A stretch of 64,000 bases of DNA from Glandiceps talaboti. Its lineage: Eukaryota > Hemichordata > Enteropneusta > Spengelidae. The position numbers were made by a program, and so were the translations under genes. This document shows positions 4,101-59,600 of the stretch, piece by piece; positions within the stretch are counted from its first letter, which is position 1, and the number at the start of each line of letters is the position of its first letter. The notes below the pieces were generated by a model that made no database searches, was not told the DNA's origin, and saw nothing but the letters and a program-made list of their open reading frames with translations. The stretch lies in NCBI RefSeq assembly GCF_964340395.1, contig NC_135570.1, forward strand, positions 15,764,322 to 15,828,321. The letters are read 5' to 3'.

Positions 4101-7100
4101 CTTACCTGTATACCCCATGTGTACCCTTACATATATGCTGAATAAATATAGACTCCACAACACAAGATTGCTAAGTCTCATTTGTTCTTATTTTATTGGA
4201 AAAATAAATGGTATTTTTGGGTAAAAAAAATCAAATTTTTAGTCAAAAATATCAAAATTCACATTTAGAACGTTATTTTCAAAAATACCTGACAAAATTA
4301 CATCAGATGTAGTAAACATGTACCTTTGAAAATTGCAGTGAACAATATACATATTAAAAAAACAGCCCTACATCATGTAAATAACAACAGTATGTAAACA
4401 AGTAAATAAATAGCTCAGTTTTATCGGCAGAATCATGATTTGTTCCTTCCATAATCACATAATTGACAGTTTCTGTTAGAAAACAATCCTGATCTTATTT
4501 CCACTAGAGTCCAGCCTCCAAAATCAACTTCGTCGTTAGTTAATACCCACGGGAAGCTATTACAAAGGGCTCCTTCCGTCCCTAATTATGTAATTTCTCT
4601 GGAAACTGATGCTTTATAAATTGATTGATTTATTTAATACCAATATCTTTGTCATTCTGTAGCTCGTTTAAGAAGTGCAATGGACCTAACAGAAATAGAT
4701 CATAATCATCGTGGTAGGGTTATCCTAGAAACCAGACACAAAGCTTGTTTATTGAAATCTCAAAGTTTGCATCGGCGATTAGTTGCTAAGAGACAAGATC
4801 CAATGATGAATTCTCTCTATAAGGATGACTCAATCAATGACCAATTAAGGTAAGTACAAAACTATAGATAATTTTCATTTCATTCTTGGCACAAAGGTGA
4901 CATTTTAAATTACAATAAAAGTCTCATTTCTACAGTACTATGGTGTCAAATTACAGTAAAATTCTTTCAATTCCACAGTACCAGTAGAACAGTAGAATTC
5001 TTTCATTTTTATAGTACCATGATGTCAAATTACAGTAAAAGAGTGCCATTTCTATTGCACCATGGTATCAAATTACTTTAATTTCGTGAGTACTGTGGTG
5101 TCAAATTACAGTAAAACTCTAAATTTCTTTTCCTCAGTACCATGGTATCAAATCTCAGCATTCCTGGTAAACGAAGTGATGATTTGATCAATTTACAAGA
5201 TCCAGAGTCTAAGAAACAACAAGATTTACAGCAGCAGATCAGAAAACTATATCAGCAAAGAAATGGTAATTTAGTGCCACAATACCCAAGCCAGGACCAA
5301 CCTGTATGTACAAGTCAACCACAAAGTGTGACCAGATATTTACAGCAAAATGACAGAATGATCAATGAACGTGCATCAAATGCACTGGGATCTCAGCCAG
5401 ACCTTTCTAGGGCTCAACCAGTTTCAGAAAGAGAATTGAACACAAATTATAGAAATGTAGAGACTGTGTATCGGACAAAGTCTGATAATTATGGTCAGTT
5501 AGGCTGTGGTAACAAACTACAAAAAAGTCATGAGAACCTACGCTATGGTCGACAAAATAGTACACAGGGCAATCCATCAACAGAAACAAGTAACCTTGAC
5601 AACAAGAATCATTATGGCAACTACTACAGTGTACTTCAAGATGATTCCAGAAGGGATGAACAGAATCACAGAGAGTTTATGCGACAAAGAGAGCAAGAGG
5701 TGAAAATGTTAGAAACTCCAAAGGACAGGACTTACCACAAGTACAAAGAGACATCAAATAGATGTGAGAATGATAACATTGGTTCACATCAACAATACAG
5801 TGCAGTAGGTATTACATATGGTGATCTAACAAGGAGTAAACCCATATCCAAGTCTACACCAAATGTTAATGTCATTGAAACATATCAAAGGACAGCATAC
5901 AGAAAACCACGAACTGAACAGGATAAACAACATGATGTCGATAGACAAAAACAGATCATTCTAGCTAGACATAGAGAAATGGTTGCCAAGCAGAAACAAA
6001 CACTGTTAGAGAAACAGGAGTTGTTAGATAGACAGAATCATAACCCAAAACAACAACTAAACAATGAATATACAAGATCACAACCTATGCTGTACTATCC
6101 ACAATCTGATGTACAAAGACATACCAGTCAAGACCCAAAACAAGTAGCACTGCAAACATGGTATAGGAAAGAAAAAGACAGGCATAATCCAACACAGAGA
6201 AGAGAAACAGGCAATCAAGATACTGCTACATTATCAGGTAAAGAAGACCTCCATATATGTACTTGTACACTAAAGAGTTCAAAACTATATTAGGTCCTTT
6301 AGACTCTAGGGTGCAGTACATTATGAGCATACAAGTCTGACTATCGCTATGTCTAGACTCTAGGGTGCAGTACATTATGAACATACAAGTCTGACTATCG
6401 CTATGTCTAGACTCTAGGGTGCAGTACATTATGAGCATACAAGTGTGACTATCACTAAGTATAGACTCTAGGGTGCAGTACATTATGAGCATACAAGTCT
6501 GACTATCACTAAGTATAGACTCTAGGGTGCAGTACATTATGAGCATACAAGTCTGACTATCGCTATGTCTAGACTCTAGGGTGCAGTACATTATGAGCAT
6601 ACAAGTGTGACTATCGCTAAGTATAGACTCTAGGGTGCAGTACATTATGAGCATACAAGTCTGACTATCACTAAGTATAGACTCTAGGGTGCAGTACATT
6701 ATGAGCATACAAGTCTGACTATCGCTATGTCTAGACTCTAGGGTGCAGTACATTATGAGCATACAAGTGTGACTATCGCTAAGTATAGACTCTAGGGTGC
6801 AGTACATTATGAGCATACAAGTGTGACTATCGCTAAGTATAGACTCTAGGGTGCAGTACATTATGAGCATACAAGTCTGACTATCGCTATGTCTAGACTC
6901 TAGGGTGCAGTACATTATGAGCATACAAGTGTGACTATCACTAAGTATAGACTCTCGGGTGCAGTACATTATGAGCATACAAGTGTGACTATCGCTAAGT
7001 ATAGACTCTAGGGTGCAGTACATTATGAGCATACAAGTCTGACTATCGCTATGTCTAGACTCTAGGGTGCAGTACATTATGAGCATACAAGTCTGACTAT

Positions 7101-8939
7101 CACTAAGTATAGACTCTAGGGTGCAGTACATTATGAGCATACAAGTCTGACTATCGCTATGTCTAGACTCTAGGGTGCAGTACATTATGAGCATACAAGT
7201 CTGACTATCGCTATGTCTAGACTCTAGGGTGCAGTACATTATGAGCATACAAGTGTGACTATCGCTAAGTATAGACTCTAGGGTGCAGTACATTATGAGC
7301 ATACAAGTGTGACTATCGCTAAGTATAGACTCTAGGGTGCAGTACATTATGAGCATACAAGTCTGACTATCGCTATGTCTAGACTCTAGGGTGCAGTACA
7401 TTATGAGCATACAAGTGTGACTATCGCTATGTCTAGACTCTAGGGTGCAGTACATTATGAGCATACAAGTCTGACTATCGCTATGTCTAGACTCTAGGGT
7501 GCAGTACATTATGAGCATACAAGTCTGACTATCGCTAAGTATAGACTCTAGGGTGCAGTACATTATGAGCATACAAGTCTGACTATCGCTATGTCTAGAC
7601 TCTAGGGTGCAGTACATTATGAGCATACAAGTGTGACTATCGCTATGTCTAGACTCTAGGGTGCAGTACATTATGAGCATACAAGTCTGACTATCGCTAT
7701 GTCTAGACTCTAGGGTGCAGTACATTATGAGCATACAAGTCTGACTATCGCTATGTCTAGACTCTAGGGTGCAGTACATTATGAGCATACAAGTCTGACT
7801 ATCGCTATGTCTAGACTCTAGGGTGCAGTACATTATGAGCATACAAGTCTGACTATCGCTATGTCTAGACTCTAGGGTGCAGTACATTATGAGCATACAA
7901 GTCTGACTATCGCTATGTCTAGACTCTAGGGTGCAGTACATTATGAGCATACAAGTCTGACTATCGCTATGTCTAGACTCTAGGGTGCAGTACATTATGA
8001 GCATACAAGTGTGACTATCACTATCCTACATTATGTACATGTACATTATGACCACTTTCACTTGTTTGACAGGTACCTGTCCAAAGTGTGGATGCAAGGA
8101 ATATTGGTTACCTGATGCAGCCAAATGTTACATGTGTGACTTCCATACAAACACACAGACAATACCAATAGGTGAGTACACAACATGACTTCCATACAAA
8201 CACACAGACAATACCAATAGGTGAGTACACAACATGACTTCCATACAAACACGCAGACAATACCAATAGGTGAGTACACAACATGACTTCCATACAAACA
8301 CCCAGACAATACCAATAAGGTGAGTACACATGTAACTTCCAGACAAACACACAAACAGTACCAATAGGTGAGTACACAACGTAACTTCCATACATACAAA
8401 CAAACACACAGACAATACCAATAGGTGAGTACAGATGTGACCTCCAGACAAACACACAGACAATACCAGTAGGTGAGTCCAACCCACCTATCAGAAAAAA
8501 AATTTGAACACCCTGATAATGTGACAGATGTAGATATTGGGTGCTCAGGGGACTAAAAGCGAACAAACGACAATAAGTAAATAAAGAAATGGCGCCAGGT
8601 TTACTACATAGGATTAAAATCAGACTGTGTTATACCCACATTGACACTCACATAGCATGGGATTAGGTTGCATGTTTTAAGCAAAACAACAGATTTCTGT
8701 GAAAATATACTGTGTGATCACTCAATTTCATGTACAAGGAATGAATGCATGCGAATTTGCATATCACTTGCATAAGGTATATGTACAGATAAATCAGGGG
8801 TTGCTCAAATGGACCATGTGACCTGTGGGTACTATTGGTACTTCCTTATAGTAACTTTTACTTCAATGTTTTAGGCAACATTTCTAAATCCAATAATGTT
8901 GTATGTTTGATTGCAGGCATTGCAAGCACAAGAACATGA
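2..8939 (+). CDS. USP54: Inactive ubiquitin carboxyl-terminal hydrolase 53/54-like, C-terminal half (six exons, 5' partial)
   Basis: Joined exons 2-1133, 2364-2483, 4663-4849, 5138-6237, 8073-8171 and 8917-8939 give 886 residues and a stop, with intron phases 1,1,2,1,1 that all agree. The frame is open to the left edge, so the N-terminal USP-fold domain lies outside the window. Seen: a Ser/Gln/Arg-rich disordered tail (RRDSGYKSGDR), a helical hairpin (CDSLLQEAENLMDKSSQAEK, then RLRSAMD and KACLLKSQSLHRRLVAKR), a Gln/Lys-rich coiled-coil region (QQDLQQQIRKLYQQR; EMVAKQKQTLLEKQELLDRQ) and a C-terminal Cys motif, CPKCGC...CYMC. Known: the hairpin block resembles the tail of USP53/USP54, catalytically dead USPs linked to cell junctions. 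Inferred: orthologue of the USP53/54 ancestor; I cannot decide between the two paralogues. The last tiny exon is the least certain part. Confidence 0.75.
539..602 (+). repeat. Coding 21-bp tandem repeat, three copies
   Basis: Three perfect 21-base units encode GQTVTGS three times inside the first USP54-like exon. The unit is a multiple of three, so copy-number change would keep the frame. Confidence 0.85.
1719..1905 (+). mobile_element. Dispersed element family A, 3' half
   Basis: This intronic stretch matches copies near 10385-10830, 27422-27592 and 33108-33412. It carries the paired phrases 'agcaacaagaccaca' and 'catagcaacagccaaat' and the end motif 'acagttgtgctacaacgcca'. It is preceded at 1629-1642 by a poly-C run. 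No coding capacity is seen. Confidence 0.6.
2364..2483 (+). CDS. USP54: USP54-like exon 2 (helical hairpin, first part)
   Basis: The acceptor TTTAG|TTGACAGC and donor ATAA|GTAAGT frame 40 codons reading VDSIRCDSLLQEAENLMDK and onward to NAI. It joins in phase to the exons on both sides. The pattern CDxLLxEAExLxxKSxQAE is the part that most clearly points to USP53/54. Confidence 0.78.
2503..4140. repeat. Minisatellite with ~23-24 bp unit in USP54-like intron 2
   Basis: About 68 degenerate units built on 'acctgtatacccatatgta' fill most of the intron between exons 2 and 3. Bases 2581-2940 and 2941-3300 are an identical 360-base duplication of a 15-unit block. Stops are rare in the unit, so all three forward frames stay open for more than 500 codons; this is not evidence of coding. 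Confidence 0.95.
4663..4849 (+). CDS. USP54: USP54-like exon 3 (helical hairpin, second part)
   Basis: The acceptor TTCTGTAG|CTCG and donor TTAAG|GTAAGT flank TRLRSAMDLTEIDHNHRGR and KACLLKSQSLHRRLVAKR. The Lys/Arg-rich helix continues the hairpin begun in exon 2, as in USP53/54. It exits in phase 2. Confidence 0.78.
4895..5137 (+). repeat. Degenerate ~57-bp repeats carrying copies of the exon 4 splice acceptor
   Basis: The end of USP54-like intron 3 contains four to five diverged copies of a unit that includes 'ACAG|TACTATGGTGTCAAAT' and 'ATAG|TACCATGATGTCAAAT'. The true exon start reads CTCAG|TACCATGGTATCAAAT. The array therefore consists of old duplications of the intron-exon border. Confidence 0.8.
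5138..6237 (+). CDS. USP54: USP54-like exon 4 (Gln-rich coiled-coil region)
   Basis: The acceptor CCTCAG|TACCATGG completes an AGT serine codon from exon 3; the donor is TATCAG|GTAAAG. The 1,100-base exon encodes a low-complexity Gln/Asn/Arg/Tyr region with heptad-like stretches. The ATG at 5142 lies within the exon and is not a gene start. The first bases of this exon are repeated upstream with their own AG acceptors. Confidence 0.75.
6294..8030. repeat. 54-bp minisatellite, ~32 copies, in USP54-like intron 4
   Basis: Units share 'gactctagggtgcagtacat' and vary at two or three positions (gtctgac/gtgtgac, atgtctag/aagtatag). Because 54 is divisible by three, the minus strand stays open for 592 codons with an 18-residue repeat. 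The array lies within an intron, and nothing suggests the repeat peptide is made. Confidence 0.95.
8073..8171 (+). CDS. USP54: USP54-like exon 5 (C-terminal four-cysteine motif)
   Basis: The acceptor TTTGACAG|GTACC and donor CCAATAG|GTGAGT flank 33 residues with TCPKCGCKEYW and AKCYMCDF, a probable zinc ribbon or zinc-binding knuckle pair. Phases fit both neighbours. The last 30 bases plus the donor are tandemly repeated downstream. Confidence 0.68.
   Translation, partial: VPVQSVDARNIGYLMQPNVTCVTSIQTHRQYQ
8172..8476 (+). repeat. 49-bp tandem copies of the exon 5 donor border
   Basis: Six to seven units each repeat the last ~30 bases of the exon and its donor ('aataccaataggtgagtac'). The first unit is the genuine exon edge at 8138-8171. 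Each later unit keeps a near-consensus GTGAGT donor. Confidence 0.9.
8917..8939 (+). CDS. USP54: USP54-like terminal exon (seven codons and stop)
   Basis: TTGATTGCAG|GCATTGC is a good acceptor in the required phase and gives GIASTRT then TGA. It is short, so the support is only phase and splice-site quality; another terminal exon is possible. Confidence 0.45.
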
Positions 8940-9362: not shown

Positions 9363-9368
9363 AATAAA
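9363..9368 (+). other. Candidate polyadenylation signal for the USP54-like gene
   Basis: AATAAA lies about 425 bases after the proposed stop codon, in a plausible 3' UTR without other genes. It is a six-base motif in AT-rich DNA, so support is modest. Confidence 0.35.
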
Positions 9369-14725: not shown

Positions 14726-14936
14726 ATGGCAGCACCAGCAACAAGATGGGGTATTTTAAGCGCGGGCAAAATTTCACACGACTTTTGCTGTGCTCTTCGA
14801 ACCCTGGACCCAAATGAACATCAAATTACAGCAGTTGCGGCGAGATCTCTCGAAGCGGCCAAGAAATTTGCTGAAGTCCACTCGATCGATAAGGCATACA
14901 GCGACTATGAAGAACTGGCAAGAGACAGTGATATAG
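14726..14936 (+). CDS. DHDH: DHDH exon 1 (start, NADP-binding fold)
   Basis: It runs from the ATG in CCGCCATGG to ATATAG|GTAAGT. It encodes the first 70 residues with the dinucleotide-binding segment [10 protein letters not shown] and [13 protein letters not shown]. Confidence 0.92.
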
Positions 14937-18022: not shown

Positions 18023-21000
18023 TACTGACAGGCTGGCTGACTGACTGACTGACTGACTGACTGACTGACTGACTGACTGACTGACTGACTGACTGACTGA
18101 CTGACTGACTGACTGACTGACTGACAAAAGTATAACATAACCCTCTTCCAGGAAGTGAAAATAAAAAGGGCCACATGAATCATTAATCTTTGATGGCATT
18201 TTCAGATATTGTATACATTGGGTCCATTCATACACAACATGCCAATTGGAGCAAGATTATGTTGACTCATGGTAAACCAGTTCTGTGTGAGAAACCTGGA
18301 GGTGTCAACAGTAAAGAAGTATCAGAGGTCATTGCCTTAGCCAAAGAAAAAAATGTATTCTTTATGGAGGTAAGATTGCATGCACTGTGTATCATCAGTT
18401 AAAGTAGTTTTATTCCAAAATATGATATATTTTTTTATCTAATCAGAAGCTCTTGCATAGCACTGGCCCAAAAAAGTGTTGTTTATTAAGACCATGCATT
18501 TTGTGGCAGATAAAATGTAATTGTAAGCCACTTTTACAGTTCCATCAAAGACTCAAGAAGCAGTCAAGAAGCTGTGATTTTTAGCACAACTGAACTGAGG
18601 TTTAGTAGTGCTATAGGGATCGCCCGGTGTCTGTCTGTGTGTGTGTGTGTGTGTGTGTGTAAACAACTTAAAGTCAAAAACCAATACGCCATATTCCGGT
18701 TATCGAACTTCCGGTAATTTCGCAGGAAAGTATCGCGAGAGGGCGCACCATATCTGACAAAGTGAGGGCCAGAATTTTCGTCATGGCATCTAATAGTATG
18801 GCGATGTATGAAGCTGTCAACAAAATGGGCGTAAAAGAACTCCGTGCATTCATAAAAGAGCGGAAAATTACTACTTCTAAAACGAGGAAAGCCGATCTAC
18901 TAGATATCGCCAGAAATGCTGTCAACCTTGGTCTTGAAACACTGGAAAATGATGATTTTCTGAGAGAACGGAAGAGGAGACGAATAGTGCATGTCGGGCA
19001 TCAAAAGATCGAACTAATCGACAGCGGAAACATTGAAAGTTGGACAGAGGACCTTCGTAATATACCCGATATAGATATGATAAACGTCTTTCTTTACCTT
19101 ACTGGTGTCTGTTGCTGGACCAAAGAACGTTTAGAAAATTACAAATCTGACAACAGCTTCCAGCTAAATGAGGACCGACACATAGACAACGTCAAATGCC
19201 ACCACATACCAAATCTCGACCATCTGTACGTAAAAAGTACATGTGTAAGGGAAACCAGCCAATCTGAAAAACCTTATGAAGCAGTGATTTTGATGAATTA
19301 CAATGGAAAAATCATCTCAGGATCGTGTCCTTGTGTTGCGTATTTATCTTTCACACCTTTACTCTCATGAAGCATTTCTATCGGTCCTCAACAAACCTAG
19401 CAGCTGTTATCGGCATTTATAAGTACGACAGGAAGTTTTTCCCCCTGTCAAATTAAGTGCTAATCGATGCTCGTTCACTTTATTGTGTTTCTTTGACTTA
19501 TTTGTTCGTCAGCAATTTAAAAATGTAATAAAAGTCACCACATTCCACTTAGTTTTATTTTTTTCGATTGCCTATGGATGATGGGAGTGGGCGCGACTGT
19601 TGACTTGTCCGTATTTCTTGGGGAAATGAAATTAACTTAGCAAATTCCAACACTCTGAATCGTAAAGACGCATTTTATGAATATCTATTCGTTATTTCTT
19701 CTATCATTACAGTGACAATGGTACTTGCAAACACTGTGTTGCAGTGCTGTTTAGTTTACATGATTTTACCCAGAGAAACAAAGACAGAAACACCGAGGTG
19801 TGTACCGATGTTCAGTGTAAATGGGACAAACCAAGGAAACAATCAAAACCAATGCGCATAGATGATATCGATGTCCGAAAAAAAAGGAGGACCCCAATGC
19901 CACCAAAACCAACGATGGATACATATAAACCCGTTACTGAGTTTCCGACAATGACCAAAGATGAACTCAGATTAGCAGTATTTGATATGTGCGAGGGTAC
20001 TAATGCTCTGTACAGAGATTCGTTGGATACAAACTTACCAAATGATGTCGAAGATGCTAAACCAGCAACAGTCGCAGAACTCGCAGAAATGTTCAACTCC
20101 AGGCAAGATTCAGATTTCATTTCATTTATGCAACAATTTTCATCACATTTGTCGTTATCGCGGTAACAAACTTGACAACTACCTCGTGTCAAAGATTTTA
20201 TCAGAGGGATCAAAACATCTCAATGTACCCGCAATAAAGTTTGGACATGAATATGAATCTGTCGCAAGGCAGCTATACCATCAGTATTTACAAGATGAGG
20301 GGCATAAAGGTGTTAAAATTTACGAGAGTGGCTTAGTTATTTCATCGGACGATTCGTATATTGGGGCGAGTCCCGATGGCATTGTTGAATGCTCATGTTG
20401 TGGGAAAAGACTTCTGGAAATAAAATGTAGCTATAAATTTCAGGATGCGTTACCTTATGAAGCTGCACAAGACTCAGCATACAATTTGTACCTTGACAAA
20501 AATGAACGCATTAGATTAAAGACATCCTCAACGTGGTATTCACAGATACAAGGTCAGCTCGGGGTTTGCCATTTCGATCGCTGTGATTTTGTGTTTTTCA
20601 CGAAAAGGGGTATCTCTGTTGAAACGATAGATTTCAATGCTAGTGTCTGGTCTGACATGAAGGAGAAGTTGTCAACTTTCTACATGAAATTTATTGTGCC
20701 ACATTTGGTGAGGGAATAGGTAATAAATAGTATGATGTATTATAAATATTTATTTTAATTGATACGAATATTGCAGAGTATTGTATTTGGGTTTATGTAC
20801 ATTTTATGCATAATTTGATATTAAATGCAAAGTACGATTTACAAAGTCGTTATTTTATGATATTTGTATATGTGTAAAATTGTATGGATAAATCAACATT
20901 TTATATCAAAGTTTGGTTTTAACACATAAAGTCTTTATTTTTACGACGTAAATGAAATATATTACTATGAAATATTCTCATCCAACATCTTTTCTTTGAA

Positions 21001-24000
21001 AGTAACACATTTACTAGTATACATAGAAACTTCAGTCATACCATATAATGGAATTGATTGATAAAGTAACAGGTTACATAATTTTTTACAGTGAATATTA
21101 ACTTGATAGATCTCAGGTTTTGCCGATCGGCTCGTAAAAGTTGCATATTCCAACAGCGACTGTAACACACTAGTTAGCAACGGGTTTCAGGTCGAGTGGC
21201 ATAATTTGGTAATAGCAAGTGAAAACACTTCATTCTCCCAATAGCTTGTTCGACTTTAATTCTGTGTCTCGCAATACTTCGTGACTCAACTATTTCTGAG
21301 GAATTGAGTCTCTTGCCCTTCACTGTCTTACATTTACGGGTAAACGGAGGAATCCTCAATGTGGCACCTTTTTCTGTAAGACAATCTCATATCAAAAATC
21401 CTCTGTCCGCCATCACTTCGTCACCGGCTTCTATGAGATCTATTAAACCGCTCTCAACTGTGATGTACTTATCGGATACGTTACCACCATATAATTGTGA
21501 CACAAATGTGAATAATCCAGTCGGACTAATGCCTAGTAACAATTTGTATGTATTATGGCTTTTATAGGTACTATATGTTGTTGACTGAGCAGTTGGTGTC
21601 CGTGGCTTCTGTATGAAAAGTTCTGTACAATCTATAATCACTCTCGTTTTGGGAAAGTGTTTTCGAAAAGAATAAGGCATGTGCTTGTCAATTATTCCCC
21701 TGGAAGGCCAAACCAGAAGAATCTTAAAAAAAATTGCGAGATAGGAAATCCAGGTTGTAAATACCCTAGACACATTAGATTGCTACACACCGAATAAGTC
21801 ACCAACGAGACCCGACATTAAACCTAGTCGGAGACGAACTAATGTCAAAACAAATTCTTGAAACCTCGTAAGTTTTCGCTTCGGACCCGACTTTCTACTG
21901 CCTTTCTTTGTTTGGTATCGCTTTGAACTTTCACTCTCTTTACCTCGCCAATACTTCAACCCCGAGTCGTATCTTTCACAAATGGTGAAAAAATTATTGA
22001 GCCCCGAGACTCTTGGAAACCCGGTGTAATATTTGACTGATTTATCGGAGTCCAGTACTTTTTCCATCATGAGTTCTCTCCTTAAGAAATCTTTGTCGTT
22101 TAATTTAGTTTTCAAATCCTCAGTTTCTTCAATATCGACCATGGTCAAGTCTGTCTGTGTAGCTGCATCTCGTTGATTTAGGAATGTCTGGCATCCCATA
22201 TTGTGGCTTTCGATTTCATCGACGTCTGTCGTCCGTAGTATGGCATATTGATGGTCACTCTGTACCGGCGTAATTTCTTCATTCTTCCATACTGTATTTA
22301 TGATAAATGGGGAGAGAAGTATTAGAAAGTATTCAATCAACATTTATTTTATGAACAAAGTACACCATACTAGTACCTAGATTGTAGTATCAATAATATA
22401 AGAGGTGACATTTGAGTGTCGAGAAGATTTTTTTATTTACTTTGTTTTGCTTCCATAACGAACTTCATTAAACAAAAAAATTAGAAGCAAAGTTTTGTAT
22501 TCTCATTCACTTCAGACAAATAAGTGTAAAAACCTAAAGTGTAATGACTGTTGTATTACCGGACGTCAGAACGGAGACGCCATGGCCACGGACGCCGTCT
22601 TTGGAAACATAAAAAGTGCAAAACTGTTTGACACATGCGCGCTAAAATACAAAGTCCCGACTTACTTTCAACATGGGATTTTGCTTGGCAACTGCCAATT
22701 TCCACCTCCCCGGCCACAACACAGTACACATCTTCAGCAGCTAAATCATCTTCGGGGATTTCTTCTCTAGTTTCTCTACAAGTAAAGTTTATTTCATTGT
22801 GGCTTTCTTCGTAGACATCTTCTACATGTAGTTTTTTTATTAGCCTTGACGATCTTGGTTTATGATGGCTTTGGCCCCAGTTTTTATACTCAAATAAAGT
22901 TGGAACTGGATTTTCTGGTGACGGACCTGACCCACCAATAAAATGACGGCTACATACCCTTGAAAATCGGTAAGGTACCCAACTAAATTCGCGTCGCATC
23001 ATCCGGATCCACCTCGATCTGAGACTTTTTTCTTTACCGGCGCTTGGGAATGCATGGAAAGATACATCTTTCATCCATGGATACTTCTCAAGATTTCTGG
23101 CTTTTCTGGACGCAGCATTACATCCAGGAGCATTACAATAGTGGTTCGGCATACTTTGTTATTGATAGGCGATAATGCAATATTATAGCGTAAAGTTACG
23201 GGGAATGACAGAAAATCTTTAGTCAGTGGTTACTATGCCTATAGACTCTACTATGCTTTGCCACAATGCTCTACAATTCTGGCCCTCACTTCCGGTTCTA
23301 AAACAGCGCCCCTAGTGGCCAAACAATCATATCTTTTATCTTTTCGGGGCTTTTTCGATAACCGGAATACGGCGTATTGCCATGATATTAGATGGGTCCA
23401 TTACCTTGGGTGTCTAGTTGGGAATATATAATACATGCATTAGTTTTGGTGTTCGCATAACTTTTAACTAAATGGTCGGAGATATTTGTAGTGAATAATC
23501 ATGATTTGAATTGACCTTTAGGGTCAATTATCAAAATCCAGTCATTTCTTAGATATCACAGACACCCTTTTACCAGTTATTTATTGACACTAATTTGTTT
23601 TAAAATCATGTCACCATTCAGTCACATAGAAGTAAAGTATTTGAGGTGCTGTGTCTTCTATAAAGACTTACAGGTTTCCTGTAAATTACATCTGTAGGCC
23701 ATCTGGAGTCGTCATTTTCCAATCTATGATGAGATTCGCAGTATTGTATCATCTGGTAGGATAGGACAAGTGAAGATGATCATGGCAAATATCGGTTTTA
23801 GTGAACTGATTAATGTACCAAGAATAGCCAAACCAGGTAAAATACACATTTTATATTTGATTTACCGAGAATAAGTAGACCAGGTAAAATACAGATATTG
23901 TATGTGATGTACTAAGAATAGCTAAACCAGGTAAAATACAGATATTGTATGTGATGTACCAAGAATAGCTAAACCAGGTAAAATACAGATATTGTATGTG

Positions 24001-27000
24001 ATGTACCAAGAATAGCTAAACCAGGTAAAATACAGATATTGTATGTGATGTACCAAGAATAGCTAAACCAGGTAAAATACAGATATTGTATGTGATGTAC
24101 TAAGAATAGCCAAACCAGGTAAAATACAGATATTATATGTGATGTACCAAGAATAGCTAAACCAGGTAAAATACACATTTTGTACAGTCATGCATAAAGG
24201 TCGAGTCATGAAACTATACAAACAAGATAACTATGTTGTGATATGACACAATAAACTGGCATCCTGTTGATTATTACCACTAAAGCAATAGTCGTGGGTA
24301 TTTAGGACAAAGATCGACTAGGTGACATAGGTCTTGTTTGTCTTCTAAAATCATGAAAATACAATCATTATTGATGTGTGAGTTACACCTGTATTATGGA
24401 TGGGGGGGGGGGGGGGTTCAGACATTTGGTACTGCATGTCATCACCATGCATGCGCTCTATGAGAAAGTCGTGACCATTTGGTTCAGCGTTCAGTGCACA
24501 TGGTGAGGAATATGCCACAAATGACCAAAATTATCAAACATGCTTGATATTTGGCTCACAGCCACGATTGACCAAAATCTCAATAAAAATTACCCGCACA
24601 TGAGAGGAATCGGTACTAGGAAATGGCCGTGAGTAACATTTTACTGGCCTTTAAAGGAATGCTGAATTTTATACATATCACAGGGTTAACACTCCTCAAT
24701 AATTGTTTCAATTCCAGTCATGATATAATTATCACAATGTTAATCATACTTTTCAATAAATACATGATAAAAGTCATGAATTTGTCACCTTGAAATCACC
24801 ACACATCTGAATTTGAAATCACGTCACATTTGAATTTGAAATCATCGCATGTTTGAATTTGAAATCACCACACATTTGAATTTGAAACCACAGCATGTTT
24901 GAATTTGAAATCACAGCACGTTTGAATTTGAAATCGCCTCACGTTTGAATTTGAAATCGCCTCACGTTTGAATTTGAAATCACATCACATTTGAATTTGA
25001 AATCATCGCACGTTTGAATTTGAAATCATCGCACGTTTGAATTTGAAATCATCGCACGTTTGAATTTGAAATCACATCACATTTAAATTTGAAACCACAG
25101 CATGTTTGAATTTGAAATCACAGCACGTTTGAATTTGAAATCGCCTCACGTTTGAATTTGAAATCGCCTCACGTTTGAATTTGAAATCACATCACATTTG
25201 AATTTGAAATCATCGCACGTTTGAATTTAAAATCACAGCACATTTGAATTTGAAATCACCTCACATTTGAATTTGAAATCACATCACATTTGAATTTGAA
25301 ATCACCACACATTTAAATTTGAAATCATCGCACATTTGAATTTGAAATCACAGCACATTTGAATTTGAAATCACAGCATGTTCGAATTTGAAATCACCGC
25401 ACGTTTGAATTTGAAATCACAGCACATCTGAATTTGAAATCACAACACATTTGAATTTGAAATCACCGCACATTTGAATTTGAAATCACAGCACATTTGA
25501 ATTTGAAATCACCACACGTTTGAATTTGAAATCACAGCACATTTGAATTTGAAATCATTGCATGTTTGAATTTGAAATCACAGCACATTTGAATTTGAAA
25601 TCATCGCACTTTGAATTTGAAATCACCGCATGTTTGAATTTGAAATCATTGCACGTTTGAATTTGAAATCACAGCACATGACTGACTGATGAATTTTGAT
25701 CTCTTTAGAACATGCAGGTGGTGGTATTCTGGATGTTGGAATTTACCCAGTTCAGCTAGTTGTTATGTTGTATGGAAATGAGAAACCACTGATAACAACC
25801 AAGGGATTCCTTTCAGAACAAGGTAATATATATGTGTATGACAGGGTGGGGGCCTAAATACTAACAACGTGCGATACACAGAGTAAATGGGAATTAGTTA
25901 GGATAGCCGAATAGTGTAGCAATAGTCTACAGGTAGGCTACAGTTAGGATAGTGGAATAGTGTAGCAATAGTCTACAGGTAGGCTACAGTTAGGATAGTG
26001 GAATAGTGTAGCAATAGTCTACAGGTAGGCTACAGTTAGGATAGCAGAATAGTGTAGCAATAGTTTACAGGTAGACTACAGTTAGGATAGTGGAATAGTG
26101 TAGCAATAGTTTACAGGTAGACTACAGTTAGGATAGTGGAATAGTGTAGCAATAGTCTACAGGTAGGCTACAGTTAGGATAGTGGAATAGTGTAGCAATA
26201 GTTTACAGGTAGACTACAGTTAGGATAGTGGAATAGTGTAGCAATAGTTTACAGGTAGGCTATAGTTAGGATAGTGGAATAGTGTAGTAATAGTCTACAG
26301 GTAGGCTACAGTTAGGATAGTGGAATAGTGTAGCAATAGTTTACAGGTAGGCTACAGTTAGGATAGCGGAATAGTGTAGTAATAGTCTACAGGTAGGCTA
26401 TAGTTAGGATAGTGGAATAGTGTAGTAATAGTCTACAGGTAGGCTACAGTTAGGATAGCGGAATAGTGTAGTAATAGTCTACAGGTAGGCTATAGTTAGG
26501 ATAGTGGAATAGTGTAGTAATAGTCTACAGGTAGACTACAGTTAGGATAGTGGAATAGTGTAGCAATAGTCTACAGGTAGGCTACAGTTAGGATAGTGGA
26601 ATAGTGTAGCAATAGTTTACAGGTAGGCTACAGTTAGGATAGCCAAATAGTGTAGCAATAGTTTACAGGTAGGCTACAGTTAGGATAGCCAAATAGTGTA
26701 GCAATAGTTTACAGGTAGGCTATAGTTAGGATAGTGGAATAGTGTAGCAATAGTCTACAAGTAGGCTACAGTTAGGATAGTGGAATAGTGTAGCAATAGT
26801 CTATAAACAGCAAAACACTAAACAATGTGTAAATTTTTTGTTATTGTACGTACAATAACAAACTTTTTATGCTTTTTGCATCATATTGAGTTATGAACAT
26901 GGACTTGGTGTATGTTCTTTCGCTTTATTTTTTCAAGTAGGAAAACATAGTGAAGCTGTTTTATCAAATAAAAATCCAAAATAGATACCAAATTCTCATC

Positions 27001-30000
27001 CATATGGCCACTTTAAATTAAGGATTTTGCTTTAATTTCACCAACTAAGGCTTTGAAGATGTGGGCTGGAGTTAGAAACCGGAGGAAGAATTTTGAAAGC
27101 ATTGTATTTGTAGAAGTATTTGTAGAAGTAGTTGTATTTGTAAATATTTTACTACAGTAACTAAACTACAAGTAGCCCAGGCCCTGCTATTACAAGTCTA
27201 CAAGTAAAGTGAAATGTACTGGATCATTTGAGAATACAAATATGCAAATTAGTATGCTAATATTTATCTCCTTGACACAGTTGAGGAAGTACATGTATAA
27301 AGGGTCCTGAAAGGGCCGTTGTGGCGATATAGATCCGAGCCAGGGGTAATAATTGTAAAGTGCATTGAGCACAGTGGGAAAGCACTATTAAAAACCAACA
27401 TTACTATTATTTATTATTATTATAGCAACAGCCAAATGATCACATATATTGCAAAGATAACAACTTGGTTGGCCACTACGCAACTGGATAATCATTCAGC
27501 AAATGAAAACCTATACTTAGCATGGATCAGCATATGGATAAACATTTTCAATAACTGTACAGTTGTGTTACAACGCCATTGGCGCTAATTTTAAAACTCA
27601 ATCATGCAAGTTTTGCTTAAATTTCATGTAGAAAATCATGGTATTTCTTGGAGTAAACACAGTAAAATATACATACTATGATAGCATGAATTTGTGGCTC
27701 CCTAGCTTGGTCATATTTGATAACTGGCACTTCAATAAAGGCTATGTCAACCTGCTATAAATAGCTTGTGATGACGTAATCTATTGGCGGTAAAGCACCA
27801 ATTTGGGTCCAAAGGGATAATATATGGAGATTACATTTAAAGTGTCTACCCCTATATTGTCAGGTTTAAACTTTTTTTTTTAGACATTGACCTTTGACCT
27901 AGACCTGGATCTTCAGGTTCAGTTACTGAAATTCAGCAATTCACTGCATAATCACAGACACTTTGTAGTATTTATTTGTTGTCACCAATTTCCAATTTCT
28001 TTTAAACCATGTCACCATTCAGTCACATTTGAGGGGGCGGCGGGGCATGTGTCTTCTATGAAGACTTGTTATCAATGAAATACTGTTGAAAGATGATGAC
28101 AATGTTTGACTCATTTTTACTTTCTAATTATACAGGTGTTGATGAAACAGCAATTGCAATATTACAGTATAGTGAAAACCGTTTTGCTGTTGTTAATAGT
28201 CATTGCAGCTTAGATCCAAGTCTTGAGGCTGATATAGTGGGTACCAAGGGAAGACTGAGGGTAAGTCACTGTGTAGGTTGCATGTACCAAAGATACTGGG
28301 TACCAAGGGAAGACTGAGGGTAAGTCACTGTGTAGGTTGCATGTACCAAAGATACTGGGTACCAAGGAAAGAGTTAGGGTAAGTCACTGTGTAGATTGCA
28401 TGTACCAAAGATACTGGGTACCAAGGGAAGACTGAGGGTAAGTCACTATGTAGGTTGCATGTACCAAAGACACTGGGTACCAAGGAAAGAGTTAGGGTAG
28501 GTGACTACAGATAATGGGTACCAAGGAAAGAGTTAGGGTAGGTGACTACAGATAATGGGTACCAAGGAAAGAGTTAGGGTAGGTGACTACAGATAATGAG
28601 TACCAAAGAAAGAGTTAGGGTAGGTGACTACAGATAATGGGTACCAAGGAAAGAGTTAGGGTAGGTGACTACAGATAATGGGTACCAAGGAAAGAGTTAG
28701 GGTAGGTGACTACAGATAATGGGTACCAAGGAAAGAGTTAGGGTAGGTGACTACAGATAATGGGTACCAAGGAAAGAGTTAGGGTAGGTGACTACAGATA
28801 ATGAGTACCAAGGAAAGAGTTAGGGTAGGTGACTACATATAATGCTACCAAGGAAAGAGTTAGGGTAGGTGACTGTAGATAATGGGTACCAAGGAAAGAG
28901 TTAGGGTAGGTGACTACAGATAATGAGTACCAAGGAAAGAGTTAGGGTAGGTGACTGTAGATAATGGGTACCAAGGAAAGAGTTAGGGTAGGTGACTACA
29001 GATAATGGGTATCAAGGAAAGAGTTAGGGTAGGTGACTACAGATAATGGGTACCAAGGAATGAGTTAGGGTAGGTGACTACAGATAATGGGTACCAAGGA
29101 AAGAGTTAGGGTAGGTGACTGTAGATAATGGGTACCAAGGAAAGAGTTAGGGTAGGTGACTACAGATAATGGGTATCAAGGAAAGAGTTAGGGTAGGTGA
29201 CTACAGATAATGGGTACCAAGGAAAGAGTTAGGGTAGGTGACTACAGATAATGGGTACCAAGGAAAGAGTTAGGGTAGGTGACTACAGATAATGAGTACC
29301 AAAGAAAGAGTTAGGGTAGGTGACTACAGATAATGGGTACCAAGGAAAGAGTTAGGGTAGGTGACTGTAGATAATGGGTACCAAGGAAAGAGTTAGGGTA
29401 GGTGACTACAGATAATGGGTATCAAGGAAAGAGTTAGGGTAGGTGACTACAGATAATGGGTACCAAGGAAAGAGTTAGGGTATGTGACTACAGATAATGG
29501 GTACCAAGGAAAGAGTTAGGGTATGTGACTACAGATAATGGGTACCAAGGAAAGAGTTAGGGTAGGTGACTACAGATAATGGGTATCAAGGAAAGAGTTA
29601 GGGTAGGTGACTGTAGATAATGGGTACCAAGGAAAGAGTTAGGGTAGGTGACTACAGATAATGGGTACCAAGGAAAGAGTTGGGGTAGGTGACTACAGAT
29701 AATGGGTACCAAGGAAAGAGTTAGGGTAGGTGACTACAGATAATGGGTACCAAGGAAAGAGTTAGGGTAGGTGACTACAGATAATGGGTACCAAGGAAAG
29801 AGTTAGGGTAGGTGACTACAGATAATGCGTACCAAGGAAAGAGTTAGGGTAGGTGACTACAGATAATGGGTACCAAGGAAAGAGTTAGGGTAGGTGACTA
29901 CAGATAATGGGTACCAAGGAAAGAGTTAAGGTAGGTGACTGCAGATAATGGGTACCAAGGAAAGAGTTAGGGTAGGTCACTGCAGATAATGGGTACCAAG

Positions 30001-37976: not shown

Positions 37977-38117
37977 GCAATAAACCACCCCCTGGGGATG
38001 GTATACCAAGAGGTTTTGACCAGTGAACGAAATATATGCACGAGCGATAGCGAGTGCATATATTGAGTTCACTGGTCAAAACCGAGTGGTATACCTTCCC
38101 CAGGGGGTGGTTTATCG
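37977..38117. mobile_element. Palindromic element H, copy 2 (inverted partner)
   Basis: Same palindrome as 37358-37498, here 'gcaataaaccaccccctggg' first and adjoining E copy 2 on its right. Confidence 0.85.
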
Positions 38118-50111: not shown

Positions 50112-51648
50112 ACCACGAGTGTATTGAGTCATCTATAGGTAAATATATAATAATATACACCACCACGAGTGTATTGAGTCATCTATAGGTAAATATATAA
50201 TAATATACACCATGAGTGTATTGAGTCATCTATAGGTAAATATATAATAATATACACCACGAGTGTATTGAGTCATCTATAGGTAAATATATAATAATAT
50301 ACACCACCAGTGTATTGAGTCATCTATAGGTAAATATATAATAATATACACCACCAGTGTATTGAGTCATCTATAGGTAAATATATAATAATATACACCA
50401 CCACGAGTGTATTGAGTCATCTATAGGTAAATATATAATAATATACACCACGAGTGTATTGAGTCATCTATAGGTAAATATATAATAATATACACCACCA
50501 CGAGTGTATTGAGTCATCTATAGGTAAATATATAATAATATACACCACCACGAGTGTATTGAGTCATCTATAGGTAAATATATAATAATATACACCACCA
50601 GTGTATTGAGTCATCTATAGGTAAATATATAATAATATACACCACCAGTGTATTGAGTCATCTATAGGTAAATATATAATAATATACACCACCAGTGTAT
50701 TGAGTCATCTATAGGTAAATATATAATAATATACACCACCACGAGTGTATTGAGTCATCTATAGGTAAATATATAATAATATACACCACCAGTGTATTGA
50801 GTCATCTATAGGTAAATATATAATAATATACACCATGAGTGTATTAAGTCATCTATAGGTAAATATATAATAATATACACCACGAGTGTATTGAGTCATC
50901 TATAGGTAAATATATAATAATATACACCACGAGTGTATTGAGTCATCTATAGGTAAATATATAATAATATACACCACGAGTGTATTGAGTCATCTATAGG
51001 TAAATATATAATAATATACACCACCACGAGTGTATTGAGTCATCTATAGGTAAATATATAATAATATACACCACGAGTGTATTGAGTCATCTATAGGTAA
51101 ATATATAATAATATACACCACCACGAGTGTATTGAGTCATCTATAGGTAAATATATAATAATATACACCACCACGAGTGTATTGAGTCATCTATAGGTAA
51201 ATATATAATAATATACACCACCAGTGTATTGAGTCATCTATAGGTAAATATATAATAATATACACCACGAGTGTATTGAGTCATCTATAGGTAAATATAT
51301 AATAATATACACCACCACGAGTGTATTGAGTCATCTATAGGTAAATATATAATAATATACACCACCACGAGTGTATTGAGTCATCTATAGGTAAATATAT
51401 AATAATATACACCACCACGAGTGTATTGAGTCATCTATAGGTAAATATATAATAATATACACCACCACGAGTGTATTGAGTCATCTATAGGTAAATATAT
51501 AATAATATACACCACCACGAGTGTATTGAGTCATCTATAGGTAAATATATAATAATATACACCACCATGAGTGTATTGAGTCATCTATAGGTAAATATAT
51601 AATAATATACACCACGAGTGTATTGAGTCATCTATAGGTAAATATATA

Positions 51649-53505: not shown

Positions 53506-53639
53506 TTATTGACTTGCGGTAGATTGTGTATCAGGAGTGGGCAGGTCAAAGATAATTGGTGGATTGGTTGGTCTGTAGCGTAGAGTGCATGTTGAAGCAT
53601 TGATATATGTTGTATAGCCATCTGTTGTCATACCATAAG
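53506..53639 (-). CDS. MPPED2: MPPED exon 6 (terminal)
   Basis: The acceptor TTCCTTAG|CTTATGG leads to AYGMTTDGYTTYINASTC and ends DTQSTASQ then TAA at 53508-53506. Its acceptor is the edge unit of the 5-kb satellite. Confidence 0.9.
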
Positions 53640-56600
53640 CTAAGGAATACATTGAAATAGTTAGTTTGTTGTAACGCTATAACCTAGGAATACATTGAAA
53701 TAGTTAGTTTGTTGTAACGCTATAACCTAGGAATACATTGAAATAGTTAGTTTGTTGTAACGCTATAACCTAGGAATACATTGAAATAGTTAGTTTGTTG
53801 TAACACTATAACCTAGGAATACATTGAAATAGTTAGTTTGTTGTAACACTATAACCTAGGAATACATTGAAATAGTTAGTTTGTTGTAACGCTATAACCT
53901 AGGAATACATTGAAATAGTTAGTTTGTTGTAACGCTGTAACCTAGGAATACATTGAAATAGTTAGTTTGTTGTAATACTATAACCTAGGAATACATTGAA
54001 ATAGTTAGTTTGTTGTAATACTATAACCTAGGAATACATTGAAATAGTTAGTTTGTTGTAACACTATAACCTAGGAATACATTGAAATAGTTAGTTTGTT
54101 GTAATACTATAACCTAGGAATACATTGAAATAGTTAGTTTGTTGTAACACTATAACCTAGGAATACATTGAAATAGTTAGTTTGTTGTAACACTATAACC
54201 TAGGAATACATTGAAATAGTTAGTTTGTTGTAACACTATAACCTAGGAATACATTGAAATAGTTAGTTTGTTGTAATACTATAACCTAGGAATACATTGA
54301 AATAGTTAGTTTGTTGTAACACTATAAGTATAACCTAGGAATACATTGCAATAGTTAGTTTGTTGTAACACTATAACCTAGGAATACATTGAAATAGTTA
54401 GTTTGTTGTAATACTATAACCTAGGAATACATTGAAATAGTTAGTTTGTTGTAACACTATAACCTAGGAATACATTGAAATAGTTAGTTTGTTGTAATAC
54501 TATAACCTAGGAATACATTGAAATAGTTAGTTTGTTGTAACGCTGTAACCTAGGAATGCATTGAAATAGTTAGTTTGTTGTAATACTATAACCTAGGAAT
54601 ACATTGAAATAGTTAGTTTGTTGTAATGCTATAACCTAGGAATACATTGAAATAGTTAGTTTGTTGTAATACTATAACCTAGGAATACATTGAAATAGTT
54701 AGTTTGTTGTAACACTATAACCTAGGAATACATTGAAATAGTTAGTTTGTTGTAACACTATAACCTAGGAATACATTGAAATAGTTAGTTTGTTGTAACA
54801 CTATAACCTAGGAATACATTGAAATAGTTAGTTTGTTGTAACGCTATAACCTAGGAATACATTGAAATAGTTAGTTTGTTGTAACGCTGTAACCTAGGAA
54901 TACATTGAAATAGTTAGTTTGTTGTAATGCTATAACCTAGGAATACATTGAAATAGTTAGTTTATTGTAATGCTATAACCTAGGAATACATTGAAATAGT
55001 TAGTTTGTTGTAACACTATAACCTAGGGAATACATTGAAATAGTTAGTTTGTTGTAACACTATAACCTAGGAATACATTGAAATAGTTAGTTTGTTGTAA
55101 CACTATAACCTAGGAATACATTGAAATAGTTAGTTTGTTGTAACACTATAACCTAGGAATACATTGAAATAGTTAGTTTGTTGTAACACTATAACCTAGG
55201 AATACATTGAAATAGTTAGTTTGTTGTAATACTATAACTTAGGAATACATTGAAATAGTTAGTTTGTTGTAACGCTATAACCTAGGAATACATTGAAATA
55301 GTTAGTTTGTTGTAACGCTATAACCTAGGAATACATTGAAATAGTTAGTTTGTTGTAATACTATAACCTAGGAATACATTGAAATAGTTAGTTTGTTGTA
55401 ACGCTATAACCTAGGAATACATTGAAATAGTTAGTTTGTTGTAACGCTATAACCTAGGAATACATTGAAATAGTTAGTTTGTTGTAACACTATAACTTAG
55501 GAATACATTGAAATAGTTAGTTTGTTGTAACACTATAACTTAGGAATACATTGAAATAGTTAGTTTGTTGTAACGCTATAACCTAGGAATACATTGAAAT
55601 AGTTAGTTTGTTGTAACACTATAACCTAGGAATACATTGAAATAGTTAGTTTGTTGTAATACTATAACCTAGGAATACATTGAAATAGTTAGTTTGTTGT
55701 AACACTATAACCTAGGAATACATTGAAATAGTTAGTTTGTTGTAACACTATAACCTAGGAATACATTGAAATAGTTAGTTTGTTGTAATGCTATAACCTA
55801 GGAATACATTGAAATAGTTAGTTTGTTGTAATACTATAACCTAGGAATACATTGAAATAGTTAGTTTGTTGTAATACTATAACTTAGGAATACATTGAAA
55901 TAGTTAGTTTGTTGTAATACTATAACTTAGGAATACATTGAAATAGTTAGTTTGTTGTAACACTATAACTTAGGAATACATTGAAATAGTTAGTTTGTTG
56001 TAACGCTATAACCTAGGAATACATTGAAATAGTTAGTTTATTGTAACACTATAACCTAGGAATACATTGAAATAGTTAGTTTGTTGTAACACTATAACCT
56101 AGGAATACATTGAAATAGTTAGTTTATTGTAATGCTATAACCTAGGAATACATTGAAATAGTTAGTTTGTTGTAACGCTATAACCTAGGAATACATTGAA
56201 ATAGTTAGTTTGTTGTAACGCTATAACCTAGGAATACATTGAAATAGTTAGTTTGTTGTAACACTATAACCTAGGAATACATTGAAATAGTTAGTTTGTT
56301 GTAACACTATAACCTAGGAATACATTGAAATAGTTAGTTTGTTGTAATGCTATAACCTAGGAATACATTGAAATAGTTAGTTTGTTGTAATGCTATAACC
56401 TAGGAATACATTGAAATAGTTAGTTTGTTGTAACACTATAACCTAGGAATACATTGAAATAGTTAGTTTGTTGTAACACTATAACCTAGGAATACATTGA
56501 AATAGTTAGTTTGTTGTAATACTATAACCTAGGAATACATTGAAATAGTTAGTTTGTTGTAATGCTATAACCTAGGAATACATTGAAATAGTTAGTTTGT

Positions 56601-59600
56601 TGTAATGCTATAACCTAGGAATACATTGAAATAGTTAGTTTGTTGTAACGCTATAACCTAGGAATACATTGAAATAGTTAGTTTGTTGTAATACTATAAC
56701 CTAGGAATACATTGAAATAGTTAGTTTGTTGTAACACTATAAGCTAGGAATACATTGAAATAGTTAGTTTGTTGTAATGCTATAACCTAGGAATACATTG
56801 AAATAGTTAGTTTGTTGTAACACTATAACCTAGGAATACATTGAAATAGTTAGTTTGTTGTAACACTGTAACCTAGGAATACATTGAAATAGTTAGTTTG
56901 TTGTAACGCTATAACCTAGGAATACATTGAAATAGTTAGTTTGTTGTAACGCTGTAACCTAGGAATACATTGAAATAGTTAGTTTATTGTAACACTATAA
57001 CCTAGGAATACATTGAAATAGTTAGTTTATTGTAACGCTGTAACCTAGGAATACATTGAAATAGTTAGTTTGTTGTAACACTATAACCTAGGAATACATT
57101 GAAATAGTTAGTTTGTTGTAACACTATAACCTAGGAATACATTGAAATAGTTAGTTTGTTGTAACACTATAACCTAGGAATACATTGAAATAGTTAGTTT
57201 GTTGTAACGCTATAACCTAGGAATACATTGAAATAGTTAGTTTGTTGTAACACTATAACCTAGGAATACATTGAAATAGTTAGTTTGTTGTAACACTATA
57301 ACCTAGGGAATACATTGAAATAGTTAGTTTGTTGTAATACTATAACCTAGGAATACATTGAAATAGTTAGTTTGTTGTAATGCCATAAGCTAGGGAATAC
57401 ATTGAAATAGTTAGTTTGTTGTAACACTATAACCTAGGAATACATTGAAATAGTTAGTTTGTTGTAACACTATAATCTAGGGAATACATTGAAATAGTTA
57501 GTTTGTTGTAATACTATAACCTAGGAATACATTGAAATAGTTAGTTTGTTGTAACACTATAACCTAGGAATACATTGAAATAGTTAGTTTGTTGTAACGC
57601 TATAAGCTAGGAATACATTGAAATAGTTAGTTTGTTGTAACACTATAACCTAGGAATACATTGAAATAGTTAGTTTGTTGTAACGCCATAACCTAGGAAT
57701 ACATTGAAATAGTTAGTTTGTTGTAACGCTGTAACCTAGGAATACATTGAAATAGTTAGTTTGTTGTAACGCTATAACCTAGGAATACATTGAAATAGTT
57801 AGTTTGTTGTAACACTATAACCTAGGAATACATTGAAATAGTTAGTTTGTTGTAACGCCATAACCTAGGAATACATTGAAATAGTTAGTTTGTTGTAACA
57901 CTATAACCTAGGAATACATTGAAATAGTTAGTTTGTTGTAACACTATAACCTAGGAATACATTGAAATAGTTAGTTTGTTGTAACACTATAACTTAGGAA
58001 TACATTGAAATAGTTAGTTTGTTGTAACACTATAACCTAGGAATACATTGAAATAGTTAGTTTGTTGTAATACTATAACCTAGGAATACATTGAAATAGT
58101 TAGTTTGTTGTAACACTATAACCTAGGAATACATTGAAATAGTTAGTTTGTTGTAACGCCATAACCTAGGAATACATTGAAATAGTTAGTTTGTTGTAAC
58201 ACTATAACCTAGGAATACATTGAAATAGTTAGTTTGTTGTAACACTATAACCTAGGAATACATTGAAATAGTTAGTTTGTTGTAACACTATAACTTAGGA
58301 ATACATTGAAATAGTTAGTTTGTTGTAACACTATAACCTAGGAATACATTGAAATAGTTAGTTTGTTGTAACGCTGTAACCTAGGAATACATTGAAATAG
58401 TTAGTTTGTTGTAACACTATAACCTAGGAATACATTGAAATAGTTAGTTTGTTGTAACACTATAACCTAGGAATACATTGAAATAGTTAGTTTGTTGTAA
58501 TACTATAACCTAGGAATACATTGAAATAGTTAGTTTGTTGTAACGCTATAACCTAGGAATACATTGAAATAGTTAGTTTGTTGTAACGCTATAACCTAGG
58601 AATACATTGAAATAGTTAGTTTGTTGTAATACTATAACCTAGGAATACATTGAAATAGTTAGTTTGTTGTAACGCTGTAACCTAGGAATGCCGAAATACG
58701 TTATTCAATGGTTGAACATTGAATATTCATGATTATGTAATCTGGTTGCACTGTACAGGATATTGGGCAGTTTAGTACTGTCATGATTTAGAAACCTGAT
58801 GGGGTTGAACTACACAACTTACCTTACAATCTATTTAAACCCATGTCCCTTAAATACAAATTACAATGTATGTATCATGATTTCTGAGATACACATACCT
58901 TCATGTATATGACCAAATACATGATATTTTGGTCTAACTCTTTTTTGAATTGTTTGTAGTAATTCCACACATCCCGTCCTCTGCTCACCAAAATTCATAT
59001 CACCATACCCTTGACGATAAATAAGAAAACATAATTAGACATGGTTTTATTCTAACACCAGTTATATGTTATACACATACAAGTCCTCTTCTTCCACATT
59101 TTATTGAGAAATAGACACGTTTCAAACAAATCAATTGGTCTTCTTTAGTGACTAATCTGGATCTGACCTTTGTCGTAAACCACAGCCTCTTTTACTGTGC
59201 CATCCTAGAGCCAAGAGGCAATGGCTTCATTCACATATAAAGGTAGTATTTATCTCTGGCTTTGTACATCAACACTACAACCAATCAGATTGCCTCATGC
59301 ATACCATGTGATGTACTAGTATGTACACTGAAAACTGACTTGGACAAAGTTGGGTTCTCGTTGCTGAAATTTAATTTTGTCATCCTACAGACAAGATTGG
59401 AATGATATGAACAGGAAATAATGACTTATAAATCTTGCCTGGAAGTATCAAATACGGTTTGTGAGAGCATGGATTTCACTGATGCTGTGTACCATCAGAT
59501 AAGACAGAATAATCCAAATTTGCTGTCTGTTTACGTTGCATGTTTGTATTATTGACAGTAACCACTTTCATTTTCTGTCATGATTATGTGGTCTTGTTGC

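What the first reader, a model, noticed from the sequence alone, without database searches (positions are those of the whole stretch)
4895..58688. Minisatellites repeatedly seeded on exon edges, copying splice sites, in three unrelated genes
In six places the tandem unit is the border of an exon with its own splice site: USP54-like exon 4 acceptor, USP54-like exon 5 donor, DHDH exon 3 donor, DHDH exon 5 donor, MPPED exon 6 acceptor, and the DHDH terminal exon across the stop. In each case the genuine border is the outermost unit and the array extends into the intron (or the 3' UTR). Chance placement of six arrays exactly on junctions seems unlikely when exons are a few per cent of the span. 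Possible explanations are a duplication mechanism that favours splice-site sequence (for example R-loop or spliceosome-linked breaks), or selection tolerating only repeats that keep a working splice site next to the exon. Intron growth by junction duplication would follow.
Basis: partly seen in the sequence, partly recalled or inferred. Interest (0 to 1): 0.87.

Follow-up and report, generated by a model that had tools for sequence, protein, structure and literature searches.

The report
Minisatellites copying exon-end splice sites
In this animal genome short tandem repeats are often built from the end of an exon plus its own splice site, a pattern already described in amphioxus as "mirages"; new here is a sign that 5' splice sites, but not 3' ones, are copied about three times more often than chance predicts.

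Summary
Five window arrays copy a splice border (three donors, two acceptors); a sixth covers the DHDH stop codon, not a splice border. With the outermost copy as border, joined DHDH and MPPED align to solved homologues with no insertion there. The kind is known: amphioxus "mirages".

Arrays cover 45% of the window, so uniform placement predicts 13 of 29 borders covered; a null for the first unit's position predicts 0.5. I tested that null in 269 kb of the same genome chosen without regard to repeats. Counting annotated borders gives no significant excess (9 of 308; 5.6 expected, p=0.12). A test without exon annotation does: 18 of 72 arrays carry a sense-strand donor (7 expected, p=0.0002), antisense 1 (4 expected), acceptors 7 (9-11 expected). 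Genome-wide, the donor word AGGTAAGT is paired at minisatellite spacing 3.0 times more often than its reversed control; an acceptor word 0.97 times.

So a donor-specific bias, about threefold, is likely but rests on few controls. Its cause, splicing-coupled duplication or better survival, is unsettled.

The parts
4663..4849 (+). USP54-like coding exon upstream of the acceptor array
   Evidence: open frame with AG/GT borders
4895..5137 (+). degenerate repeats of the acceptor border (AG|TACCATGGTGTCAAAT...), seen by eye, not called by TRF
5138..6237 (+).
8073..8171 (+).
8137..8478 (+). 49-bp array of the exon 5 donor border, 7 donor copies
14726..14936 (+). DHDH exon 1
18206..18369 (+). DHDH exon 2
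23698..23836 (+). DHDH exon 3
23813..24184 (+). 47-bp array of the DHDH exon 3 donor border, 8 donor copies
25709..25822 (+). DHDH exon 4
28136..28260 (+). DHDH exon 5
28234..30000 (+). 59-bp then 41-bp arrays of the DHDH exon 5 donor border; 1740 of the 3178 bp of intron 5
31439..31601 (+). DHDH exon 6
33801..33931 (+). DHDH exon 7 with the stop codon
33888..34117 (+). 57-bp array across the DHDH stop codon; not a splice border
53506..53639 (-).
53623..58689 (-). 43-bp array of the MPPED last-exon acceptor, 106 acceptor copies by motif; 96% of the intron
58899..59009 (-). MPPED exon before the array

Best explanation
These are minisatellites of the 'mirage' kind. Short local duplications (units here 41-141 bp) arise all through gene bodies in a repeat-rich genome. 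When one covers an exon end, selection keeps the outermost copy as the working border, the other copies become intron, and later unequal exchange or slippage expands them, so the intron grows from its own edge. Duplications that contain a 5' splice site are about threefold over-represented and lie in sense orientation; 3' splice sites are not over-represented. Shown here: the anatomy, the donor excess by two measures, and for two borders that the intron position is shared with paralogues with no array called at that border. Inferred: that splicing uses the outermost copy, that expansion is by exchange or slippage, and that the donor excess comes from something acting on transcribed donors (splicing- or transcription-coupled duplication, or better survival of donor copies) rather than from the DNA word alone.
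For: Gapless homology with the outermost copies in DHDH and MPPED. In 269,496 bp sampled by protein family, 9 of 308 annotated borders are spanned (7 of 148 donors, 2 of 160 acceptors). Of the 11 sense-donor arrays not at annotated borders I inspected five; four lie at unannotated exon ends by their translation. Sense donor (score 7 or more) in 18 of 72 units against 7.3 (p=2.4e-4), 6.9 in a within-gene null (p=2e-4); antisense 1 against 4.3; acceptor 7 against 9.2. With 200-280 true donors in the sample (my estimate) 3.3-4.7 donor arrays are expected against 11 found (p=0.0007-0.009). Genome-wide AGGTAAGT pairs over singles 3831/28973=13.2%, reversed control 1627/36815=4.4%; acceptor word 3404/97599=3.5%, its control 2189/60944=3.6%. 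Two of eight array borders tested share intron position and phase with paralogues with no array called at that border.
Against: The direct count at annotated borders is not significant (9 against 5.6, p=0.12; ratios 0.91-1.64 over the settings). Two nonsense controls made from the same 72 units were not low at score 7: reversed 6, complement 12, against sense 18 and antisense 1; at score 10 they are 1 and 4 against 9 and 1. Borders lie inside repeats less often than random intron positions (3.2% against 10.1%). No array of three or more copies lies on an annotated border in the sample (0 against 1.8 expected); the one such border array, C2:33105225 with 5.6 copies, came from later inspection, so the large arrays of the window are not typical. 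I inspected donor-scoring arrays only, so 11 donors against 2 acceptors is not a fair contrast. At C12:385958 the annotated border falls in the second copy, and which copy is used is unclear. Pair counts are not independent: big arrays count many times. No RNA was available.
Confidence: 0.6

Rival explanations
1. No bias at all: duplications start uniformly, exon interiors are purged, and border arrays are simply the edge of the intronic distribution.
For: Direct count 9 of 308 against 5.6, p=0.12; the edge density of arrays at acceptors is flat across the border; random intron positions lie in repeats more often than borders do; the complement control reaches 12 of 72 at score 7.
Against: Sense-donor excess 18 against about 7 of 72 arrays and the threefold genome-wide donor-word excess.
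Confidence: 0.22
2. Survival bias: duplications hit donors and other sites alike, but donor copies are better tolerated (the first donor is used) and last longer because one copy is under selection, while acceptor copies, lying upstream of the true one, are weeded out.
For: Acceptor-containing arrays at or below expectation (7 against 9.2-11.5); donor arrays are not younger than others (mean match 86.5% against 88.9%, p=0.31).
Against: Intronic arrays are the baseline, so tolerance alone should give at most 1.0 for donors; slower decay would help acceptors equally.
Confidence: 0.4
3. Splicing- or transcription-coupled duplication: donors are break or slippage hot spots only where they are transcribed in sense.
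For: Sense, not antisense, enrichment (18 against 1 of 72). At least 11 of the 18 arrays lie at real exon ends (7 annotated, 4 inspected). The other seven, six of them not inspected, are near the 4.9 expected from background segments away from annotated exons (6.8% of 72).
Against: No mechanism was observed; survival bias predicts much of the same; the complement control is high at score 7.
Confidence: 0.28

Closest known systems
Amphioxus 'mirages' (Adh3, globins BflGb6 and BflGb9, TnC, PGBD5); PMC3087553 and PMC3902484, passages seen; the Adh3 and TnC papers themselves not read
   Same: Minisatellite-like tandem copies spanning an exon-intron border, at donors and acceptors; many copies keep splice signals; proposed to explain new introns; reported not to disturb splicing.
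   Different: In the passages I saw they are described gene by gene, without a count against a null. This genome is probably not Branchiostoma: at least 21 contigs of about 16 Mb or more here, 19-20 chromosomes there (recalled).
Intron gain by tandem duplication of AGGT segments (review PMC3443670, passages seen; human internal tandem repeats PMC2812944, passages seen)
   Same: Local tandem duplication of sequence with splice signals inside genes.
   Different: There a new intron is created inside an exon; here existing introns are enlarged, and at two of eight tested borders the intron position is shared with paralogues.
Human introns from tandem arrays (Zhuo et al. 2007, recalled, not read)
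   Same: Introns associated with tandem direct repeats at their borders.
   Different: Both intron borders match each other there (recalled); here only one border is copied.

Membership tests
mirage minisatellites | tandem units span an exon-intron border | tested here: met
   five window borders; nine in the sample and four more by inspection
mirage minisatellites | both donor and acceptor borders can be affected | tested here: met
   3 donors and 2 acceptors in the window; 7 donors and 2 acceptors among 308 annotated sample borders
mirage minisatellites | normal mRNA splicing despite the copies | not testable with these tools
   no RNA; only gapless protein homology for DHDH and MPPED
mirage minisatellites | length instability between alleles or tissues | not testable with these tools
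   one assembly only
mirage minisatellites | host is a cephalochordate (where described) | tested here: inconclusive
   species not given; contig sizes argue against Branchiostoma by recalled chromosome numbers; mitochondrial search did not complete
intron gain by AGGT tandem duplication | the array-bearing intron is newly gained | tested here: inconclusive
   against it at two of eight array borders tested (position within 2.5 profile columns and phase shared with paralogues with no array called at that border); the other six undecided

The most novel reading that the evidence does not exclude
Transcribed 5' splice sites, and not 3' splice sites or the same DNA word in antisense, are hot spots of local tandem duplication in this genome, so that spliceosome or U1/R-loop-linked DNA damage at donors seeds minisatellites and lengthens introns from their 5' ends.
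Probability: 0.27. Interest if true: 0.8.

Novelty: new member of a known kind. Interest (0 to 1): 0.55.

Why it matters
If the donor bias holds genome-wide it would link splicing to local DNA duplication, give introns a route to grow from one end, and make the amphioxus 'mirages' part of a measurable, directional process. The MPPED intron is also a natural test of splice-site choice: one weak true acceptor (score 1.9) downstream of 105 copies that all score higher.

Tried and rejected
Direct count at annotated borders: no significant excess; the subset of arrays under three copies, looked at afterwards, gives 9 against 3.8 (p=0.017). Duplicate-near-border scan: borders 3.2% (10 of 308), random intron 10.1% (606 of 6000), decoy AGGTRAG 14.9% (7 of 47) at the lowest threshold; it mixes array interiors with seeds, so I read it as coverage depletion, not as a test of seeding. 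Age difference of donor arrays: none. Further control words and a second donor word (TGAATGGA pair list, AGGTGAGT pairs and singles) did not complete. Species by mitochondrial COX1 (PF00115): not completed. USP54 identity: no Pfam support. Literature for a genome-wide count of repeats on splice borders: none seen in the listings.

The sample: PF00063 all 78 rows, PF00118 all 57, PF00443 8 of 75 rows (those with loci), PF00225 56 of 142 rows (those in stretches chosen for fetching; clustered near-identical kinesin copies left out on purpose). Of 370 ends of 185 exons, 308 borders passed the filter; the filter drops ends with two near-equal candidates, which may remove some repeated borders. The splice matrices were trained on borders of the same sample, array-bearing ones included. 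Array cut-offs (period 15 or more, score 80 or more) and matrix thresholds were chosen after looking; several are reported.
Full report
What was checked. The window lies in a 590-Mb animal genome (G000:C24:15764322-15828321). Gene models were built from open frames and splice signals. DHDH has seven exons and 348 codons and aligns to dimeric dihydrodiol dehydrogenase 2o48 over residues 5-340 (E=1.1e-81). The MPPED part (five exons found, minus strand) aligns to MPPED2 3rl4 (E=4.5e-103). Neither alignment has an insertion at the array-bearing junctions when the outermost copy is taken as the border.

The six places. Three are donor arrays (8137-8478; 23813-24184; 28234-30000), two are acceptor arrays (53623-58689 minus; about 4895-5137, degenerate and found by eye), and one is an array over the DHDH stop codon (33888-34117), which is not a splice border. 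The copies keep the splice signal: 7, 8 and 38 donors and 106 acceptors found by motif. In the DHDH exon 3 array all eight donors score alike. In the MPPED array the true acceptor scores 1.9 while 101 of 106 copies score 5.2 and the other four 2.8-4.6; each consensus unit also carries ACTAAC, which looks like a branch point (motif recalled). Arrays make up 96% of MPPED intron 5, 55% of DHDH intron 5, 19% of DHDH intron 3, and about 84% of the USP54-like intron before 5138.

Chance. Tandem arrays (period 15 or more, score 80 or more) cover 45% of the window. If arrays were laid down at random 13.2 of 29 borders would be covered; 4 are spanned by called arrays. If instead one asks how often a first unit would lie across a border, 0.50 is expected (p=0.0017). 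The window was chosen because of the pattern, so an independent sample was needed.

Independent sample. Exons were found by four protein families in the same genome and 95 merged stretches, 269,496 bp, were analysed (loci and stretches). In 185 exons 308 borders were placed. Arrays span 9: 7 of 148 donors, 2 of 160 acceptors, in myosin, chaperonin and kinesin genes. The seed null expects 5.6 (p=0.12): not significant; other settings give ratios 0.91-1.64. All nine have fewer than three copies. In one of them (C12:385958) the annotated border falls in the second copy. Array edges occur at much the same density in introns and in the last 100 bp of exons, with none 100-150 bp inside exons; they are somewhat denser around donors (16 edges within 100 bp either side of 148 donors, my sum of the bins).

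Annotation-free test. Because exons outside the family domains were not annotated, I asked instead whether the repeat unit contains a strong donor or acceptor in the sense of the gene, against length-matched segments of the same genes. Donor score 7 or more: 18 of 72 in sense against 7.3 expected (p=2.4e-4), 6.9 in a within-gene null (p=2e-4). Score 10 or more: 9 against 2.4 (p=6e-4). Antisense donor: 1 against 4.3. Acceptor: 7 against 9.2 (11.5 within genes). Two nonsense readings of the same units serve as further controls and are less clean: at score 7 reversed 6 and complement 12, at score 10 they are 1 and 4. The ten arrays with donor 9 or more fall in 9 of 61 gene clusters. Of the 18 arrays 7 are at annotated donors; of the other 11 I read five through: four are at exon ends (for example the myosin P-loop exon ending GKTESTKYILR at C4:29915298), one is intronic; six were not inspected. 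The sense-over-antisense excess of donor sites suggests about 200-280 true donors in the sample (estimate), hence 3.3-4.7 expected donor arrays against 11 (p=0.0007-0.009). Acceptor-scoring arrays were not inspected in the same way.

Whole genome. The donor word AGGTAAGT occurs 28,973 times and 3,831 times as a pair 25-55 bases apart (13.2%). The same word read backwards: 36,815 and 1,627 (4.4%). The acceptor word TTTNCAGG: 97,599 and 3,404 (3.5%); backwards 60,944 and 2,189 (3.6%). CAGGTAAGT pairs: 623 against 264 for its reversal; no singles were counted. Ratios: donor 3.0, acceptor 0.97. By locus, in the parts of C1 that were listed, array loci with several matches are 4 per about 248 donor words (first 5.05 Mb) and 5 per about 3,797 acceptor words (first 22.97 Mb; p=0.001), or 2 per about 835 acceptor words in the same 5.05 Mb (p=0.03). 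I counted these clusters by eye and left out single pairs and a recurrent dispersed element among the acceptor matches. Big arrays count many times in the raw totals.

Meaning. A hot spot made by the DNA word would act in both orientations; antisense donors are not enriched, so something that reads the transcript matters: splicing-linked damage, or survival. Survival explains the lack of acceptors well but not easily a donor excess above intronic arrays. At two of eight array borders tested the intron position and phase are shared with paralogues with no array called at that border, so there the array came to an existing intron.

Known or new. The kind is known. Amphioxus globin, Adh3, TnC and PGBD5 genes carry such 'mirages' and are reported to splice normally (passages of PMC3087553 and PMC3902484). 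I saw no report of donor specificity or a genome-wide count in my searches (listings), whose library lacks most subscription papers. The species here is not named; contig sizes with recalled chromosome numbers argue against Branchiostoma.

Noticed in passing
window 53623-58689: The 43-bp unit of the MPPED array holds an ACTAAC branch-point-like word, a short pyrimidine run and CCTAG|G, so the copies look like complete 3' splice sites that score higher than the true one.
   Followed up: partly
window 36479-39023: A nested set of inverted repeats (five arm pairs, 129-322 nt, 95-100% complementary) flanked by 47-bp arrays (36041-36483, 37502-37976, 39023-51648); the unit carries CTATAGGTAAAT.
   Followed up: partly
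window 19976-20716: Open frame with a YqaJ-like recombinase domain (E=3.5e-12) inside DHDH intron 2, probably part of a mobile element.
   Followed up: no
window 22559-23158 minus: Open frame with a THAP domain (E=1.9e-10) inside DHDH intron 2.
   Followed up: no
window 25896-26803: 46-bp array with CTACAG|GTAGGC, about 74 bp after the DHDH exon 4 donor: donor-like but not at an exon end.
   Followed up: partly
G000 C9, C22, C23 (kinesin rows): Similar kinesin exon matches spaced about 1.8-2 kb, several per place, on three contigs: looks like local gene amplification.
   Followed up: no
G000 C1: Acceptor-word pairs recur about 1,150 bp apart at several places, pointing to a dispersed element with internal short repeats.
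   Followed up: no
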